DNA of 64,000 nt from Desulfovibrio aminophilus DSM 12254 (GTDB taxonomy: Bacteria > Desulfobacterota > Desulfovibrionia > Desulfovibrionales > Desulfovibrionaceae): the NCBI RefSeq assembly GCF_000422565.1, contig NZ_AUMA01000016.1, positions 1 to 64,000 on the forward strand, read 5' to 3'. This document shows positions 51,495 to 64,000 of this stretch, in pieces; within the stretch, counting starts at the first letter, position 1, and each line of letters begins with the position of its first letter. Made by a program: the position numbers and the translations under genes. A model generated the notes under the pieces. The model worked only from the letters and a program-made list of their open reading frames with translations, was not told the origin of the DNA and did no database searches.

Positions 51495-54359
51495 TTACCA
51501 CTCCACGGGCAGGCGGACCTTCTGCTTGGCCTTGTTCTGGAACAGCACGAAGCCGTTGTCACGGCCATGGACGTAGAGGTCGCGGGTCACGGCCACGTCC
51601 TGGCGGCAGTATTCGGTGATGAGGTCCAGGCGGCCCTCCTTCCACCACTTGAGCGCCATGAGTCCGTCGGCGGACTTGCCCGCGCCAAGGGTGGCCTGGG
51701 CCAGGTTGTCCAGCTTGAGCCGGTAGCCCAACCGCTGGTGGACCTTCTCCAGCATGTCCAGGGTGGGCAGGCTGTGGAAGGGGAAGGGCGTCACGCCCTG
51801 GAGCACGGAGTAGTCGAAGCGGCGCACGTTGAAGCCCACCACGAGGTCGAAGCCACGCAGGAATTCGGCCATGGCGGGCACCTCCTCCTGCGGAAAGTCC
51901 CGGAACTCCTCGCGCGCGGAGTCCCAGACCACGGCGATGCTCACGCCCATCCGGTCGGCGCGGTTCCAGCCGCCCACCTCGTCGGCCCCGTAACGCGTCT
52001 CCACGTCGAGCACGGCGAAATTCCGGGGCGCGGCTTTCCGCAAAAGCAAGGACTGCTGAGGCTGCGGCGTCTGGGACATGGGCGTTTCCTCCCGGGCCGC
52101 GATTTCCGGCGGCCGACCTTCGCGGATGCTCCGCAGTACGAAGCGCGCCGCGTCCTTGTCAATGGGGCGGTTGCCGGAGCCGCACTTGGGTGAGTGCACG
52201 CAGGAGGGGCAGCCGGTTTCGCAGGGGCACTCCTCGATGGTCCGCAGGGTGGCGACGATGAGTTCCCCGGCCCGGCCGAACGCCTCGCGGGTCAGGCCCG
52301 CTCCGCCGGGCAGGCCGTCGTAGATGAACACCGCCGCCGAACCCACCTGGGGGTGGAAGGGTGTGGAGATGCCGCCCAGGTCGTTGCGGTCGGCCAGCAC
52401 GAGCAGAGGCAGGATGCCGATGGCCGCGTGCTCCATGGCGTGGATGCCGCCCATGAAGTGCAGATAGCCCTGCTCGGCGGCCCGGCGGATCTCGTCGGCA
52501 ATCTCGAACCAGAGACCCTCGGTCTCGAAGACCAGGGGCGGGAAGTCCAGGGGCACCATGCCCAGGAGCTTGCCCCCGCGCACGGCCCGCTTTTCGTAGC
52601 CGGTGATCTCTTCGGTGACGCGCAGGCGGCCGAAGCTCACCCGCGCGCCGAAGGCCGCGCCGCGATCATGAACTTCCAGTATTTCCGTTGACTTGTGCCC
52701 GCGCACGCGGGTGTAATAGGCCACCCGCCGGGGCTCGGCCAGCACCCGGTTCGTCTCCAGGTCCATGTCCGCGATGACGTAGCTCTGGCCCCGGTGCAGG
52801 TAGACCGCGCCGGGGTGGGTCTCGCGGAAGGCCCGGAAGGCGTCGATGGTCCCGATCTCCCGGCCTTCGCGATCCTCGATGTGCAGGCTCCGGCCCGCGC
52901 CGCGCAGATCCAGGTCGCGGTGGGGCCGCCTTCGTCCGGCCACCACCTCCTTGCCGTCCTCGGTGAAGAACAGCCCGCCCTCGGCGAGGAGATGCTCCAC
53001 CCGCGCCCGCACCGGCTCCTCGGCCAGGTAGGGCTCGTCCAGGCGCAGGGACAGTTCGGCCGTGGCGCAGACCAGGTGCCGGTCCAGGATCACCGGGTTG
53101 TGGGGGTTGAGCACCGCGCACTCCGGCGGCCGGGCGAAGAAGTCCTCGGGGTGGCGCATGAAGTACTGGTCCAGGGCGTCCTCCCCGGCCACCAGGGCCA
53201 CGGCCGAGTCGCGCAGGGAGCGGCCCACCCGGCCGCCGCGCTGGAGCGTGGCCATGACCGTGCCCGGGTAGCCCACCAGGATGCAGAGGTCCAGGCCGCC
53301 GATGTCGATGCCCAGCTCCAGGGCGCTGGTGGAGATCACCGCCAGCAGTTCGCCCGAGGACATGCGGGCCTCGATCTCCCGGCGCTCCTCGGGCAGGAAG
53401 CCCGCGCGGTAGGCGCTGATGCGCTCCCGGTACGGCCCGGAACGCTCCGAGGCCCAGAGGGCCACCAACTCGGTGAGCTTGCGCGACTGGCAGTAGAGGA
53501 TGGTTCTGAGCCCCCGAGCCAGGGCCGCCTGGAGAAGCAGGATCGCGGCCTGGGCCGGGCCGTCCGCCGGATTGAGAAAGACCATGTGCCGCCCGCCCTG
53601 GGCCGCGCCGGACTCCGTGACCCCCTCCACGGGCAGCCCCGTGAGCTGGGTGCAGAGCTGTTCCGGATTGCCCACCGTGGCCGAGCAGAAGATGAAGGTC
53701 GGGGTGGAGCCGTACAGGGCGCAGATCCGCAGGAGCCGCCGGAACAGGCAGGCCATGTGCGAACCGAACACGCCCCGGTAGGTATGCACCTCGTCCACGA
53801 CCACGAAGGACAGGCCCGCGAACAGCTCGGCCCAGATTCCGTGGTGCGGCAGGAGCGAGAGATGCAGCATCTCCGGGTTGGTCAGCAGGACGTTCGGCGG
53901 GGACTGGCGGAGCTTCTTGCGGCGGTAGGGGCTCGTGTCGCCGTCGTAGATCGCGGCCGTGGGAGCGCTCTTGCCCAGCGGCGCCGCCAACTCCTCGAAG
54001 GCCCGCAGCTGGTCCTGGGCCAGGGCCTTGAGCGGGAAGAGATAGAGCGCCTTGGAGTCGGGGTTGCGCAGGGCCTCCTCGATCACCGGCAGGTTGTAGC
54101 AGAGGGTCTTGCCGCTGGCCGTGGGCGTGGCCACCACCACGTTGCGGCCCGCGCGGGCCAGGTTCACGGCCTGGGCCTGGTGGACGTACAGCTCCGAAAG
54201 CCCCCGGGTCTCCAGCAGGCCGCGCATCGAGGCCCCCCAAGGCCGGGCGGGCTCCGCGAAGGCCGCCTCGCGGCCGGGCAGCAGGCGGTGATGCACCACC
54301 TGCCCTCCCAGGCGGGGGGAGTCCAGCAGGGCGGTGACGTATTCCAGGACAGGGTTCAT
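51495..54359 (-). CDS. MrfA-MrfB-like helicase-exonuclease fusion
   Basis: A 954-residue protein. Residues 1-760 form a DEAD/DEAH superfamily-2 helicase of the YprA/MrfA type: 'VVATPTASGKTLCYN', 'VVVDEVHTYRG', 'ATLQRGGRVGRS' and a DUF1998 region with four cysteines ('CPCETGCPSCVHSPKC', about 708-725). A Gln/Pro-rich linker follows, then a DEDD exonuclease domain (from about 770): 'FAVLDVETRYG', 'DLVVGFNVRRFDYSVL' and 'EYCRQDVAVTRDLY', similar to YprB/MrfB. In Bacillus the two are separate proteins that repair mitomycin damage. An internal start with its own ribosome binding site lies at 52079. Confidence 0.9.
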   Translation of the reverse strand: MNPVLEYVTALLDSPRLGGQVVHHRLLPGREAAFAEPARPWGASMRGLLETRGLSELYVHQAQAVNLARAGRNVVVATPTASGKTLCYNLPVIEEALRNPDSKALYLFPLKALAQDQLRAFEELAAPLGKSAPTAAIYDGDTSPYRRKKLRQSPPNVLLTNPEMLHLSLLPHHGIWAELFAGLSFVVVDEVHTYRGVFGSHMACLFRRLLRICALYGSTPTFIFCSATVGNPEQLCTQLTGLPVEGVTESGAAQGGRHMVFLNPADGPAQAAILLLQAALARGLRTILYCQSRKLTELVALWASERSGPYRERISAYRAGFLPEERREIEARMSSGELLAVISTSALELGIDIGGLDLCILVGYPGTVMATLQRGGRVGRSLRDSAVALVAGEDALDQYFMRHPEDFFARPPECAVLNPHNPVILDRHLVCATAELSLRLDEPYLAEEPVRARVEHLLAEGGLFFTEDGKEVVAGRRRPHRDLDLRGAGRSLHIEDREGREIGTIDAFRAFRETHPGAVYLHRGQSYVIADMDLETNRVLAEPRRVAYYTRVRGHKSTEILEVHDRGAAFGARVSFGRLRVTEEITGYEKRAVRGGKLLGMVPLDFPPLVFETEGLWFEIADEIRRAAEQGYLHFMGGIHAMEHAAIGILPLLVLADRNDLGGISTPFHPQVGSAAVFIYDGLPGGAGLTREAFGRAGELIVATLRTIEECPCETGCPSCVHSPKCGSGNRPIDKDAARFVLRSIREGRPPEIAAREETPMSQTPQPQQSLLLRKAAPRNFAVLDVETRYGADEVGGWNRADRMGVSIAVVWDSAREEFRDFPQEEVPAMAEFLRGFDLVVGFNVRRFDYSVLQGVTPFPFHSLPTLDMLEKVHQRLGYRLKLDNLAQATLGAGKSADGLMALKWWKEGRLDLITEYCRQDVAVTRDLYVHGRDNGFVLFQNKAKQKVRLPVEW
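52077..52092 (-). promoter_or_regulatory. Internal ribosome binding site and start of the exonuclease part
   Basis: GGAGG (52092-52088) lies eight bases before an in-frame ATG (52079) at residue 761 of the fusion protein, exactly at the linker. Translation from here would give a 194-residue stand-alone MrfB-like exonuclease (51495-52079). Confidence 0.5.
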
Positions 54360-58277: not shown

Positions 58278-58287
58278 CCCACCCGCA

Positions 58288-58318
58288 CCGGGCCGTCCTC
58301 TGGACGGCCCGGTTTTTT
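58288..58318 (+). terminator. Rho-independent terminator of rsgA
   Basis: The perfect 11-bp stem CCGGGCCGTCC / GGACGGCCCGG with loop TCT is followed by six T. Confidence 0.92.
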
Positions 58319-59068: not shown

Positions 59069-62000
59069 ATGAAATTCAGAGTTTCCCTGCTGTTAGCGTG
59101 TGCGCTCTGCCTTGCCGCACAGTCCGCCTTCGCCGCCACCCAATATGCCGTTGGTCCCTTCATCTTGAACGTGCGTTCAGCGGGCGAGTCGTATCAGGAA
59201 GTCCCGCCGCCGTATCCGCCGACCATCGTCACCGGAGACTTCAGCGCGGCGGAGCTGGAAGCCATCATGGCGGGCGTCAATGTCTGGGTTGAACGGGTTG
59301 GCGGCAGCGCCTCCCCCGGCATCATCATCAACCTGGCGAAGGTCGCCGACCCGAGCGGCACGGCCTACAACTACACGTACTACACAGGCCGCGAAAATCC
59401 CGACCTGTACGACTACCTCGTAAACGGCCAGTACCATGCCCCGAACCCCTCCCTCGGCTATCATACCGAGGTCGTCTACGCCATCGACTACCCGGCGACG
59501 CCCACGAGGCTGGGACTCGACGGCCACCTTTGCTCCACCAGCATGGCTCACGAACTGATGCACGCCCTCGGCATGCACGGCGTGCTCTTGCGCCAGAACG
59601 ACGGCCTCCCGTGGAACCAGACGACCTGGACGTTCGACGCGTCATCGGCGTGGGACTCGCACCTGTACGACGTCAATGGCGTCAAGGGCGAGCAGGGCAG
59701 CATCGTCTTCGACCCCGCAGAACCCACCAACCGCTCCAACGGCAGTTTCGTGCTGCCGGACTTCAGCGCCGACCCCACGCACCCCATGCCCTCGCATCCG
59801 GGGCAGGTGAGCTTCTTTCCCACCTTCCATGGCCCGGCCGTGGACGCGCTCAGCAACGGCAAGGGGTTGCCCCTCGCCGGCGGCATCGGGGCAGACTACC
59901 GGATCGATGACGGCAATGTGCTGGGGCACTCGGCCCTGCTGGGGTCGCTCATGTCTTGCTCGCCCGTTGCATTCGTGCTCTTTCCCGAGTTGGAGCTGGC
60001 TGCGCTCAAGGACATGGGCTATTCCGTCGACCTGAAGCAATTCTTCGGCAAAAGCTACTACCCAAGCAATCTGGGCGGCTTTCTGACCACCGACCCCGCC
60101 ATGGCGCCCGGCAAGGTGGGAGCGTATTTGGCCGAGACCGCGGACACCGTGGTCAATACCGCCGGCTTCAACAGCGCGGCCTCCTTCGGCACGGGCCTGC
60201 ACGTCTACCGCGACAAGCTCAACGTCACCCAGGCGGCGAACATCTACGCCAGCGGGAACGCGGCGGGCGGCATCCGCATCGACGGGGTGGGCAACACCCT
60301 GACCATCCCCAACGGGATCACCGTGTCCGCAAACGGAAATTACGGTACGGGCCTGCTCGTCTCCTACGGCAAGGGCAACGTCATCAACCTCAATGGCGTC
60401 GTCGAGGCCACCGGCCCTGAGGGCGTCGGCGCGGTCTTCGACACCGGCTCATGGTACTTGTCCTATTATTACATCCCGCCAGGCGCATATGGAGTCAACG
60501 CCGACTACCGCTACTTCTTAAGCAAGATGAACTCCGACCTGAACGGGCCGCTGGTGGACTCCTTCAATATCGCAGGAAGCCTTACGGGCTCCTCCGCGGC
60601 GATACGGATAGGCTCCTATGCCTACGTCAAGGCCATCAACATCATGCGAGGAGCAGCCGTCACGGGCGACATTGTGAACGGGTGGAACCCCTGGGACATG
60701 GGTGTGTCGTCAAGCAACACAACGGCCCTGAACGTTGGCGTGAGCGATACGGCCGGAACGCCGGACAGCGCCTTCAACATGCGCTACGACGGCGACATCA
60801 CCGGCCCGGCAAGCTTCAAAATGAACGTCGCCGGCGGCACATTCTCCTACAACGGCACGTACAGCGGCCTGGCCGCCACCGTGCAGGCCGGGGCCACCCT
60901 CAAGGGCAACGCCACCTACCAGCTCTATGCCGACGGCACCCCTGCCGGGCAGGCCGCCCCGGGCGACGGCGCGTTCACCAACGCCGGAACCGTCGCGCCG
61001 GGCAACAGCATCGGCACGGTCAACATCACCGGCAACTTCACCAACACCGGCACCCTGCTCATGGAGTTCGACGCCAGAGGGCAAACGGACAAGCTGAACG
61101 TCAGCGGCGTGTTCAACCACAACACCGGCGCAGGCGCAAAGGTGACGGTGGCGCCCGAGCCCGGGTACTACTCCGGCACCATGGCCATACCCTTTCCGAG
61201 CATGTTCAGCGGAGGCGGGGGCAGCACCCTGCCCAGCATCATCGACAGCTTCGTGGCCCCAAACTCGCCCACCCTTGGCATGACGATGTCCGCCGGGCCG
61301 GTGTACACCGTGACCACCACGCGCAGCGCCAACGCATACAGCCAGTATGCCACAAGCAGCGACGCCGCCGACTTGGGCCGCGCCCTGGATGCAATTGCAG
61401 GCTCTGCCCAGAGCGACATGCAGCAGCTGTTCAGCGTGCTGGACTTTTCCTCAGCGGGCGGCGGCACCATCGCCACCGCCATGGTCGAGCTCTCTCCGGC
61501 GGCCTACAACAGCTCGGCCCAGGCCGCTCTCAACTCCAGCCGGATGCTCTCCAGCGCATTGTTGCGGGCCATGCAGCGGGCGCCGAGCTCCCTGGCGCGC
61601 GGCAAGAACGGCGGCGACAGCCCCGAGGTCTGGTCCGCCTATGCGGTGCCCTACGGCGGGTTGCAGCAGCAACGCACCCTGGGCGAGGCTCCGGGCTACA
61701 GCTCCTCAGACGCCGGCGTCTTCAGCGTCGTTGAGCGCGAATATGAAGATGGCCTCAGCGCGGGCTTTCATGTGGCGCTCACGCATCGCCAGGTGGATGT
61801 AAACACCCAGGCTGGCGGGCAAATGAATACCGACGGCATGCATTTCGGCGTGCAGGCCCAGGTGCAGCCGAACCCTTCGGAAGGCGGGTACGCGCACGGC
61901 CTGGCGCGGGTCGGCATCGAGAACAACACCTCCCGGCGCAAAGTCGACTTCAACGGCTACCAGCGTACCAGCCAGGGAGAGTGGATAGGCTTGGCCAGTG

Positions 62001-62476
62001 GGGCGGATGTGGGCGCGGGCTACAATTGGCGTGTGGGGCCGGTGTCCTTCGGGCCGGTTGCCGACCTGGATTACGCCTTCAACTGGCGCCCGGCCGTGAG
62101 GGAGACCGGCGGCGGCGGGGCCGACCTCGCCCTGGACTCCGCCGGGCAACACAGCCTGCACTCGGCCCTTGGCGGGCAGCTGCAAACGGAACTCGGCCTT
62201 GATCAGGGCCAGCTCATCCAGGCCGGGTTGCGCGCAATGTGGCTGCGTGATCTCTTGGGCGACGCCATAACCACGCGCGGCAGCTTTGCCGACGCCGACG
62301 GCCCGAAGTTCTCGTCACACGCTCCTGCGCCGGCCAGAGACAGCTTGGGACTCAGCGCGCACGCTTCCCTGCTGCTGACGGACGGCCTGAGGTGCGGCGC
62401 CTTTGTCGGGACCGAGCTGTTCCGGGCAGGTTTTTCCAGCGTCGAGGGCGGCCTGTCCTTCAACTGGAATTTCTAG
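59069..62476 (+). CDS. Autotransporter with metzincin-type zinc protease passenger
   Basis: A 1135-residue type Va autotransporter. Signal peptide is residues 1-23 ('LAAQSAFA'). The passenger carries 'HELMHALGMHG' (161-171), the HExxHxxGxxH motif of metzincins, and a later 'GSLMSCS' (Met295) that could be the Met-turn. A Gly/Asn-rich beta-helix region (about 330-700) follows. From about 850 to the end is a beta-barrel ('EVWSAYAVPYGGLQQQRTLG', last residues 'LSFNWNF' with terminal Phe). ATG at 59069 is preceded by GAGAG. It should be exported by the Sec and Bam systems and act as a cell-surface protease. Confidence 0.88.
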   Translation: MKFRVSLLLACALCLAAQSAFAATQYAVGPFILNVRSAGESYQEVPPPYPPTIVTGDFSAAELEAIMAGVNVWVERVGGSASPGIIINLAKVADPSGTAYNYTYYTGRENPDLYDYLVNGQYHAPNPSLGYHTEVVYAIDYPATPTRLGLDGHLCSTSMAHELMHALGMHGVLLRQNDGLPWNQTTWTFDASSAWDSHLYDVNGVKGEQGSIVFDPAEPTNRSNGSFVLPDFSADPTHPMPSHPGQVSFFPTFHGPAVDALSNGKGLPLAGGIGADYRIDDGNVLGHSALLGSLMSCSPVAFVLFPELELAALKDMGYSVDLKQFFGKSYYPSNLGGFLTTDPAMAPGKVGAYLAETADTVVNTAGFNSAASFGTGLHVYRDKLNVTQAANIYASGNAAGGIRIDGVGNTLTIPNGITVSANGNYGTGLLVSYGKGNVINLNGVVEATGPEGVGAVFDTGSWYLSYYYIPPGAYGVNADYRYFLSKMNSDLNGPLVDSFNIAGSLTGSSAAIRIGSYAYVKAINIMRGAAVTGDIVNGWNPWDMGVSSSNTTALNVGVSDTAGTPDSAFNMRYDGDITGPASFKMNVAGGTFSYNGTYSGLAATVQAGATLKGNATYQLYADGTPAGQAAPGDGAFTNAGTVAPGNSIGTVNITGNFTNTGTLLMEFDARGQTDKLNVSGVFNHNTGAGAKVTVAPEPGYYSGTMAIPFPSMFSGGGGSTLPSIIDSFVAPNSPTLGMTMSAGPVYTVTTTRSANAYSQYATSSDAADLGRALDAIAGSAQSDMQQLFSVLDFSSAGGGTIATAMVELSPAAYNSSAQAALNSSRMLSSALLRAMQRAPSSLARGKNGGDSPEVWSAYAVPYGGLQQQRTLGEAPGYSSSDAGVFSVVEREYEDGLSAGFHVALTHRQVDVNTQAGGQMNTDGMHFGVQAQVQPNPSEGGYAHGLARVGIENNTSRRKVDFNGYQRTSQGEWIGLASGADVGAGYNWRVGPVSFGPVADLDYAFNWRPAVRETGGGGADLALDSAGQHSLHSALGGQLQTELGLDQGQLIQAGLRAMWLRDLLGDAITTRGSFADADGPKFSSHAPAPARDSLGLSAHASLLLTDGLRCGAFVGTELFRAGFSSVEGGLSFNWNF

Positions 62477-62815
62477 GTGTTCCATTTCTCCCCTTGACCG
62501 GGGCTTGGGGGCAAAGCCCCAGAGGATTCCAGGCGGGTTCGCGGGGCGGCCTGCCGATGCGAGGCGGAAGCAAGGCCTCGAGCTTCCGTGCCGGAACGTG
62601 GACCGGCCGCCACAAGGCCTGCCGACGCGGAATGTTGCCCGCGAAAATGCGTTCTGATAGCCTGATCAAGGGAGTATATCCTACCGGCCCGGCCCCGTCC
62701 CGCGAGACGCGCCCTCGGCGCCGGAGATTCATGGCCGGGTGTGATGGCGTGCACCATGCCCGGCCATGCATGGGTCATGAGAGCACAGAGCTGAATACGC
62801 GACATGGAGGTTCTC
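62477..62815. other. 339-bp intergenic region
   Basis: No gene is seen. A hairpin TGGGG-N6-CCCCA at 62506-62521 is related to the other intergenic hairpins. GGAGG at the end is the ribosome binding site of the next gene. Confidence 0.4.
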
Positions 62816-64000
62816 ATGAAAATGCCTGAACATCCGGTGCTCCAGTACCGTTGGGCGCTACGGGATGGAAAAGAAGGGAAGGCCCTTGTGTATTACGGGC
62901 TGCGCAATCCGCCGCGCCAGCATGAGTCCGTGGTGTCCATTCCCAGCTTTCTCGCCGAGGCGCTGAACCGGCCCGACGGCTCGACCAGCCTGGACAGGCT
63001 GCCGCAGGCCGTACGCGAAAGCGAGGACTTCCTGCACTTGGTGGAGCAGCGGATCGTGGTGGACCGGCCGGAGCAGCGCAAACCGTCCACGGCCGAGCAC
63101 AAGCGGGCCTGCGTCCGGTGCGTGGCCGACGACCACCTGTTGCCCGGGCTGGAGTTCGATGAACGCGGTGTGTGCGCCTTCTGCCAGTGCTACGAGCTGG
63201 CCGAACGGGATGGCGGGTCCGCCGGACCGCGCAACCAGGTGGATGACGCCGAACTCCTGTCCATCGCCGCCGCCAACAAGGAGTCCCGGTTCGACGTCAT
63301 GGTCCTGTGCACCGGCGGCAAGGACTCCACCTATCTTTTATGGTATCTGGCCAAAAAGCTTGGGCTCCGCGTTCTCGCCGCATCCTGGAACATGCCGTAC
63401 ACCAACGAGACCTGCCGGAGAAATCTTCGCCGCGCTCTTGAACTGCTGCCACAGGTCGAGCTGGTGGAGCGGACCCTGCCCTGGAACGACATCCGCGCCG
63501 CCATGCGCGCCCAGTTCGGCAACGTGGGCGTGCCGTGCCTCTGCCCGGTGGTGGCCCATGTGTTGTTCTTCCCCCTGGCCACGGAGGAGCGGATTCCGAT
63601 AGTCATGCAGGGGGTTGAGGAAGTGCAGCTGGCGGTCATGAGCTATGTGCTGCGCAACCTGCGGCCGGGCAAGGGACAGTCCAAGCCCGCGCCGCCGTCC
63701 ATCCGCGAGCAGACCCTCCAGTTCCTGGAGATGGTGGCCGACGCTCCCGAACCGGCCGATCCCTTTTCCATGACAGCGGATTTCATCAACTACCAGCGGT
63801 CCATCCGGAGCGTCCTCGATCCGATCTATGCGCCGTTCGACCGCATGCTGCGAAGGGCCAGACTGGACGAATCCGCGTTCCTGCCGCAGCTACGACGCCT
63901 CAGGACGAATGAGCTGTACGGCACGTGGTCGGAGGTGGCGGAGCTCATGCACAAGGAGATGGACTGGAGAATGCCGCCGGGGCAGAGGGGACTGCTGCAC
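62816..64000 (+). CDS. PP-loop (N-type ATP pyrophosphatase) sugar amidotransferase-like protein, partial
   Basis: The frame is open from ATG at 62816 (GGAGG five bases upstream) to the window end, giving 395 residues without a stop. A Cys motif 'CVRCVADDHLLPGLEFDERG' is followed by 'CAFCQCYE', as in N-acetyl-sugar amidotransferases of the WbpG/PseA group. The PP-loop 'LCTGGKDSTYLLWYL' binds ATP. An N-terminal region of about 95 residues is extra relative to WbpG. It would use ammonia from a HisH-like partner to form a sugar amidine, but no partner is visible because the window ends. Confidence 0.8.
   Translation, partial: MKMPEHPVLQYRWALRDGKEGKALVYYGLRNPPRQHESVVSIPSFLAEALNRPDGSTSLDRLPQAVRESEDFLHLVEQRIVVDRPEQRKPSTAEHKRACVRCVADDHLLPGLEFDERGVCAFCQCYELAERDGGSAGPRNQVDDAELLSIAAANKESRFDVMVLCTGGKDSTYLLWYLAKKLGLRVLAASWNMPYTNETCRRNLRRALELLPQVELVERTLPWNDIRAAMRAQFGNVGVPCLCPVVAHVLFFPLATEERIPIVMQGVEEVQLAVMSYVLRNLRPGKGQSKPAPPSIREQTLQFLEMVADAPEPADPFSMTADFINYQRSIRSVLDPIYAPFDRMLRRARLDESAFLPQLRRLRTNELYGTWSEVAELMHKEMDWRMPPGQRGLLH

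What the first reader, a model, noticed from the sequence alone, without database searches (positions are those of the whole stretch)
59069..62476. Autotransporter with an HExxHxxGxxH passenger
Seen: signal peptide, zinc motif at residues 161-171, possible Met-turn at 295, then a long repeat region and a C-terminal barrel ending in Phe. Known: most protease autotransporters are serine proteases; metzincin passengers are uncommon. Inference: it is a cell-surface or released zinc protease in an anaerobe, and the Gly/Asn-rich part is a stalk.
Basis: partly seen in the sequence, partly recalled or inferred. Interest (0 to 1): 0.63.

Follow-up and report, generated by a model that had tools for sequence, protein, structure and literature searches.

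The report
Surface metalloprotease carried by an autotransporter
This gene of a Desulfovibrio-type bacterium encodes an outer-membrane autotransporter that most likely displays a zinc protease built like the leishmanolysin of Leishmania, belonging to a widespread family that the protein databases tested do not yet name.

Summary
The ORF (59069-62476, 1135 aa) is real and under purifying selection. It is a type Va autotransporter: signal peptide, Gly/Asn/Ala-rich stalk, PF03797 barrel (E 1.3e-33), C-terminal Phe. Residues 161-171 are HELMHALGMHG, i.e. HExxHxxGxH, and that third His (H170) is absent from every relative aligned, including the 83%-identical Humidesulfovibrio orthologue (Lys). What is conserved is HExxH (161/162/165), a distant His (H287) and a Met-turn (M295): HExxHxLG, about 120 aa, then H-x7-M. 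This is leishmanolysin's interrupted metzincin motif. The family aligns profile-to-profile with bacterial metalloproteases near NF038122 (hhalign E 2.6e-13); that group's best PDB match is leishmanolysin 1LML, whose zinc ligand H334 falls on the H287 column. So 'metzincin-type zinc protease on an autotransporter' is the best reading, but with a different zinc site from the one proposed. Relatives occur in 36 of 348 genomes of the order and on plasmids of Salmonella, Serratia, Erwinia, Pandoraea and Bradyrhizobium. No Pfam/NCBIfam model names the passenger. Structure prediction failed (pLDDT 28), so fold and activity are inferred. New variant of a known kind; moderate interest.

The parts
59069..62476 (+). 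Autotransporter gene, 1135 aa plus stop
   Evidence: ORF; orthologue L005 at 81-83% identity in the protease domain; dN/dS 0.23-0.36 against it
59069..59134 (+). Signal peptide, residues 1-22 (AFA|A)
   Evidence: by inspection only
59135..60103 (+). Metzincin-type protease domain, residues 23-345
   Evidence: family alignment A2; hhalign to NF038122-type metalloproteases, prob 98, E 2.6e-13
59549..59563 (+). HELMH, residues 161-165: zinc ligands H161 and H165, general base E162
   Evidence: invariant in all relatives aligned; zinc binding inferred
59576..59578 (+).
   Evidence: H only in the window protein; K, G, S, I, A, D, L, M, N elsewhere
59927..59929 (+). H287, proposed third zinc ligand
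   Evidence: invariant; falls on the column of leishmanolysin's second matched stretch GSHIKMRN; H334 is an active-site residue in PMC4580569
59945..59956 (+). SLMS, residues 293-296: Met-turn (M295)
   Evidence: M conserved except in two relatives (L030: Arg; L040: Leu)
60104..61408 (+). Gly/Asn/Thr/Ala-rich stalk, residues 346-780, probably beta-helical
   Evidence: composition; no Pfam hit; fold inferred
60962..61174 (+). Autochaperone-like stretch near residues 632-702 (FTNAGTVAPGNSIGTVNITGNFTNTGTLLMEF...)
   Evidence: resemblance by inspection to passenger C-terminal regions; not tested
61649..62473 (+). Autotransporter beta-barrel, residues 861-1135, ending in Phe
   Evidence: PF03797 E 1.3e-33; 3.9e-35
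58287..58313 (+). Terminator-like hairpin after the upstream rsgA gene, suggesting that the autotransporter has its own transcription unit
   Evidence: 12-bp stem followed by a T run; rsgA by PF03193

Best explanation
The gene encodes a type Va protease autotransporter whose N-terminal passenger (residues about 23-345) is a metzincin-type zinc endopeptidase with a leishmanolysin-like active-site layout: H161, H165 and the distant H287 hold the zinc, E162 activates water, and M295 forms the Met-turn. After Sec export the barrel inserts in the outer membrane and the passenger crosses C-terminus first; the Gly/Asn-rich stalk folds outside, and the protease, being the N-terminal part, emerges and folds last. 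There is little room for a propeptide between signal peptide and domain, so the enzyme may be kept inactive inside the cell simply because it is unfolded until outside. Shown: ORF, barrel, homology, residue invariance. Inferred: zinc binding, activity, surface display or release, latency by topology. The substrate is unknown.
For: PF03797 barrel, also in 7 of 8 further full-length relatives scanned and in L016; every relative whose frame was read to its stop ends in Phe. HExxH and H287 invariant, Met-turn nearly so, in 34 aligned domains and 24 full-length or long frames. NF038122 metalloprotease matches in 28 of 35 members, best E 5.6e-7, and Matrixin in 22 of 35, best 2.1e-4. hhalign to the NF038122-type alignment: prob 98, E 2.6e-13, with both HExxH and H287 columns matched. 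Leishmanolysin 1LML is the best PDB match of that alignment (E 1.2e-4) and of a merged profile (E 5.1e-5), in two collinear stretches covering HExxH and the third His. PMC4580569 gives leishmanolysin's active-site residues as H264, E265, H268, H334, with a 62-residue insertion before the last; the 70-residue spacing equals that of the two stretches. dN/dS about 0.36 in the protease domain.
Against: The window protein itself matches no Pfam or NCBIfam peptidase model; the link runs through relatives. AlphaFold2 from two sequences failed (pLDDT 28, pTM 0.18), so there is no fold check. Individual PDB stretches are weak, and the merged profile contains NF038122-type proteins. No activity data.
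Confidence: 0.82

Rival explanations
1. Classical metzincin with a contiguous HExxHxxGxxH/D motif (serralysin, matrixin, astacin or snapalysin type), with a His or Asp just after the Gly as third ligand.
For: Matrixin and astacin models score weakly in relatives; MMPs and astacin appear in PDB lists.
Against: The window has His at +9, not +10, and the position is not conserved in any relative; paralogues even lack the Gly (HELMHALDM). The weak matches cover the HExxH helix region, whereas leishmanolysin also matches around the third His.
Confidence: 0.04
2. A metalloprotease-derived passenger that has lost catalysis and serves as an adhesin or structural cap.
For: Many autotransporter passengers are adhesins (general knowledge); two relatives lack the Met of the Met-turn (L030, L040).
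Against: HExxH and the third His are invariant in every member of the alignment; loss of function would be expected to release these residues.
Confidence: 0.08
3. A gluzincin or other zincin: the third ligand is another conserved residue, e.g. the downstream Glu in PELELAALKD, and H287 is structural.
For: A Glu at position 287 of the A2 first row (window residue 307) is also invariant.
Against: The Gly of HExxHxLG, the Met-turn and the third His follow the metzincin pattern; hhalign and the leishmanolysin match place H287 on the known ligand H334.
Confidence: 0.06

Closest known systems
Leishmanolysin (GP63), MEROPS M8, PDB 1LML
   Same: HExxHxLG followed by a long insertion, then a third His in a 'SH...LM' stretch with Met-turn and a following 'xLxDxG' segment; surface-displayed protease
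   Different: Insertion about 120 rather than 62 residues; PF01457 does not recognise the window protein; few Cys, no evident propeptide; anchored by a beta-barrel rather than a GPI anchor (GPI and propeptide of GP63: own knowledge)
NCBIfam NF038122 (metallo_LGF) bacterial metalloproteases
   Same: Same order HExxHxLG(F) - SHxxx - LMxP - DxGW/Y; hhalign E 2.6e-13; matches in 28 of 35 relatives
   Different: The clear NF038122 members found here are not on autotransporter barrels (e.g. L060 is 344 aa with a PEP-CTERM-like tail); the window protein does not match the model
Protease autotransporters (SPATEs S6, subtilisin-type S8; also M10, M28 and C1 types listed in PMC5767081)
   Same: Protease passenger, stalk, C-terminal beta-barrel
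   Different: Zinc catalysis with a leishmanolysin-like site; PMC5767081 lists M10 and M28 metallopeptidase autotransporters but not this type
'Autotransporter outer membrane beta-barrel domain-containing protein' on plasmids of Pandoraea, Salmonella, Serratia, Erwinia
   Same: Same whole architecture and active-site residues
   Different: Only 23-28% identical to the window passenger; annotated without a protease function

Membership tests
Type Va autotransporter | C-terminal PF03797 beta-domain | tested here: met
   E 1.3e-33, 117 bits against cut-off 26
Type Va autotransporter | N-terminal signal peptide | tested here: inconclusive
   Clear by inspection, but no predictor available
Type Va autotransporter | C-terminal aromatic residue in beta-signal | tested here: met
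   ...SFNWNF; complete relatives end in F
Type Va autotransporter | Passenger exposed on or released from the cell surface | not testable with these tools
   needs experiment
Metzincins (clan MA(M)) | HExxH with following Gly | tested here: met
   HELMHALG; HExxH invariant, Gly in all but two paralogues
Metzincins (clan MA(M)) | Contiguous HExxHxxGxxH/D | tested here: not met
   HELMHALGMHG; +10 is Gly; +9 His not conserved. Leishmanolysin, itself a metzincin, also lacks the contiguous form (PMC4580569)
Metzincins (clan MA(M)) | Met-turn | tested here: met
   M295 in SLMS, conserved in all but two relatives; by sequence only
Metzincins (clan MA(M)) | Metzincin fold | tested here: inconclusive
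   AlphaFold2 with 2 sequences: pLDDT 28
Leishmanolysin M8 | Third zinc His displaced by an insertion after the Gly | tested here: met
   H287 invariant and aligned with the leishmanolysin third-His stretch through intermediates
Leishmanolysin M8 | Match to PF01457 over its cut-off | tested here: not met
   No match for the window protein; one of 35 relatives at E 0.011
NF038122 metallo_LGF | Match over curated cut-off (80 bits) | tested here: not met
   No match for the window protein or own genome; relatives only weak
SPATE / serine protease autotransporter | S6 or S8 peptidase domain | tested here: not met
   No such Pfam match

The most novel reading that the evidence does not exclude
An undescribed family of leishmanolysin-like protease autotransporters, common in the Desulfovibrionaceae-type family of this genome and spread on conjugative plasmids among Enterobacterales and Burkholderiales, in which the protease is held inactive by export topology rather than by a propeptide.
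Probability: 0.5. Interest if true: 0.55.

Novelty: new variant of a known kind. Interest (0 to 1): 0.42.

Why it matters
Known protease autotransporters studied at the bench are mostly serine proteases. A metzincin with leishmanolysin's active-site order on an autotransporter would give a named function to many proteins now labelled only 'autotransporter beta-barrel protein', including in sulfate reducers and on mobile plasmids, and would offer a bacterial, genetically simple relative of the leishmanolysin active site.

Tried and rejected
Contiguous metzincin motif rejected by conservation. H198 (WDSHLYD) considered as third ligand and rejected: Arg in the closest relatives. AlphaFold2 on window plus L005 gave pLDDT 28; no fold search was made on it. 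A deeper alignment was not folded because loci from the genome search, the fetch from genomes and plasmid records are not on the tool's permitted list. Viral contigs and phages gave no relatives. Single-sequence PDB search found nothing. No conserved gene neighbourhood: flanks of L005 and L015 differ from the window. Literature searches for metzincin, leishmanolysin or metalloprotease autotransporters found no description. The Enterobacterales version has no close DNA match in E. coli genomes.

Full report
The ORF. An ATG-started frame at 59069-62476 (+) encodes 1135 aa. Pfam finds only the autotransporter beta-domain at 861-1110 (E 1.3e-33); NCBIfam finds nothing. The protein ends in Phe. A signal peptide is evident by eye. 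The gene has a terminator-like hairpin upstream, after rsgA, so it probably is its own unit. Against the orthologue in a Humidesulfovibrio MAG (L005), dN/dS is 0.36 in the protease domain, 0.23 in the stalk and 0.28 in the barrel part: a gene kept under purifying selection.

The motif. The residues are HELMHALGMHG: the third His is at +9. In L005 it is Lys; in the paralogue of the same genome (60% identical, L015) the stretch is HELMHALDMGG; no other relative aligned has His there. So H170 is incidental.

Relatives. Searching the order with a profile found the domain in 36 of 348 genomes and 9 of 59 genera, all but one genome in the same family; a broader sample of the phylum found 8 of 395, including another family with divergent members. 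Plasmid records of Pandoraea, Serratia, Raoultella, Salmonella, Erwinia, Bradyrhizobium and Selenomonas carry it too. Of eight further full-length relatives scanned, seven have the PF03797 barrel; the eighth (L086, 1551 aa) has none detected but also ends in Phe.

What is invariant. Across 35 aligned domains: H161, E162, H165 and H287, and nearly always G168, D201 and M295 (window numbering = first-row position + 20). A merged alignment with more distant metalloproteases keeps HExxH, the Gly and the distant His invariant.

What it resembles. Individual relatives match NF038122 (28 of 35, best 5.6e-7) and Matrixin (22 of 35, best 2.1e-4). I fetched two true NF038122 members and five weaker neighbours; they show HExxHxLGF ... 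SHW/SHF ... LMxP/IMDP ... DxGW. hhalign aligns the two families over 247 columns, probability 98, E 2.6e-13, with the third His matched. That group's best PDB match is leishmanolysin 1LML, E 1.2e-4, in two stretches, HEMAHALGFS and GSHIKMRNAQDELMAP; the merged profile also has 1LML first, E 5.1e-5. The two His (chain positions 165 and 235 by counting along the printed stretches) are 70 apart, as are H264 and H334, the active-site residues named in PMC4580569, which also describes the insertion between the motif's Gly and the third His. This places H287 of the window on leishmanolysin's third zinc ligand.

Mechanism. The likely picture is a zinc endopeptidase at the tip of a stalk, exported by the autotransporter route. 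The domain starts almost directly after the signal peptide, so a long propeptide is unlikely; because the N-terminal part crosses the outer membrane last and folds outside, activity in the periplasm may be avoided without one. This last point is inference. Substrate and whether the passenger is released are unknown; there is no conserved neighbourhood to suggest them.

Limits. The window protein does not pass PF01457 or NF038122, so it is not filed as a member of M8 or of NF038122; it works like M8 on the evidence of the active-site order.

Literature. No paper in the library describes leishmanolysin- or metzincin-type autotransporters. PMC5767081 lists metallopeptidase autotransporters of M10 and M28 type, so metalloprotease passengers as such are not new.

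Noticed in passing
G000:C4:145795-146763 (-), locus L015:5411-8833: A second copy of the autotransporter in the same genome, 60% identical in the protease domain, with HELMHALDM (Gly of the motif replaced by Asp). In the same-genus genome G002 only this version was found, while the window version is closest to a different genus (83%).
   Followed up: partly
window 59531-59533 and 59957-59959 (C155, C297): The window passenger has two Cys close to the active-site elements (LCSTSMAHE and SLMSCSP) that the orthologue L005 lacks (Phe and Tyr); they could form a species-specific disulfide.
   Followed up: no
loci L012, L014 (Salmonella, Erwinia plasmids); L009, L013 (Pandoraea plasmids): Plasmid-borne members of the family sit next to a recombinase gene (L012, L014) or near IS transposase genes (L009, L013), suggesting mobility.
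   Followed up: partly
window 51495-54359 (-): One 954-aa protein joins a MrfA/HRQ1-type DEAD helicase (DEAD, Helicase_C, MZB) to a C-terminal RNase_H_2 exonuclease-like domain; it looks like a natural MrfA-MrfB fusion (the MrfAB comparison is from own knowledge).
   Followed up: partly
window 62804-64000, continuing in L017:805-4180: Downstream genes: a CTGGKDS (PP-loop-like) protein with CxxC motifs and no Pfam match, a ThiF-family protein and a GNAT acetyltransferase, overlapping or adjacent on one strand; they look like a small biosynthetic or modification operon.
   Followed up: partly
loci L086, L087: Relatives with frames of about 1400-1550 aa; L086 carries the same protease domain but no detectable PF03797 barrel, and both end in LRYEF, suggesting a different barrel type.
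   Followed up: no
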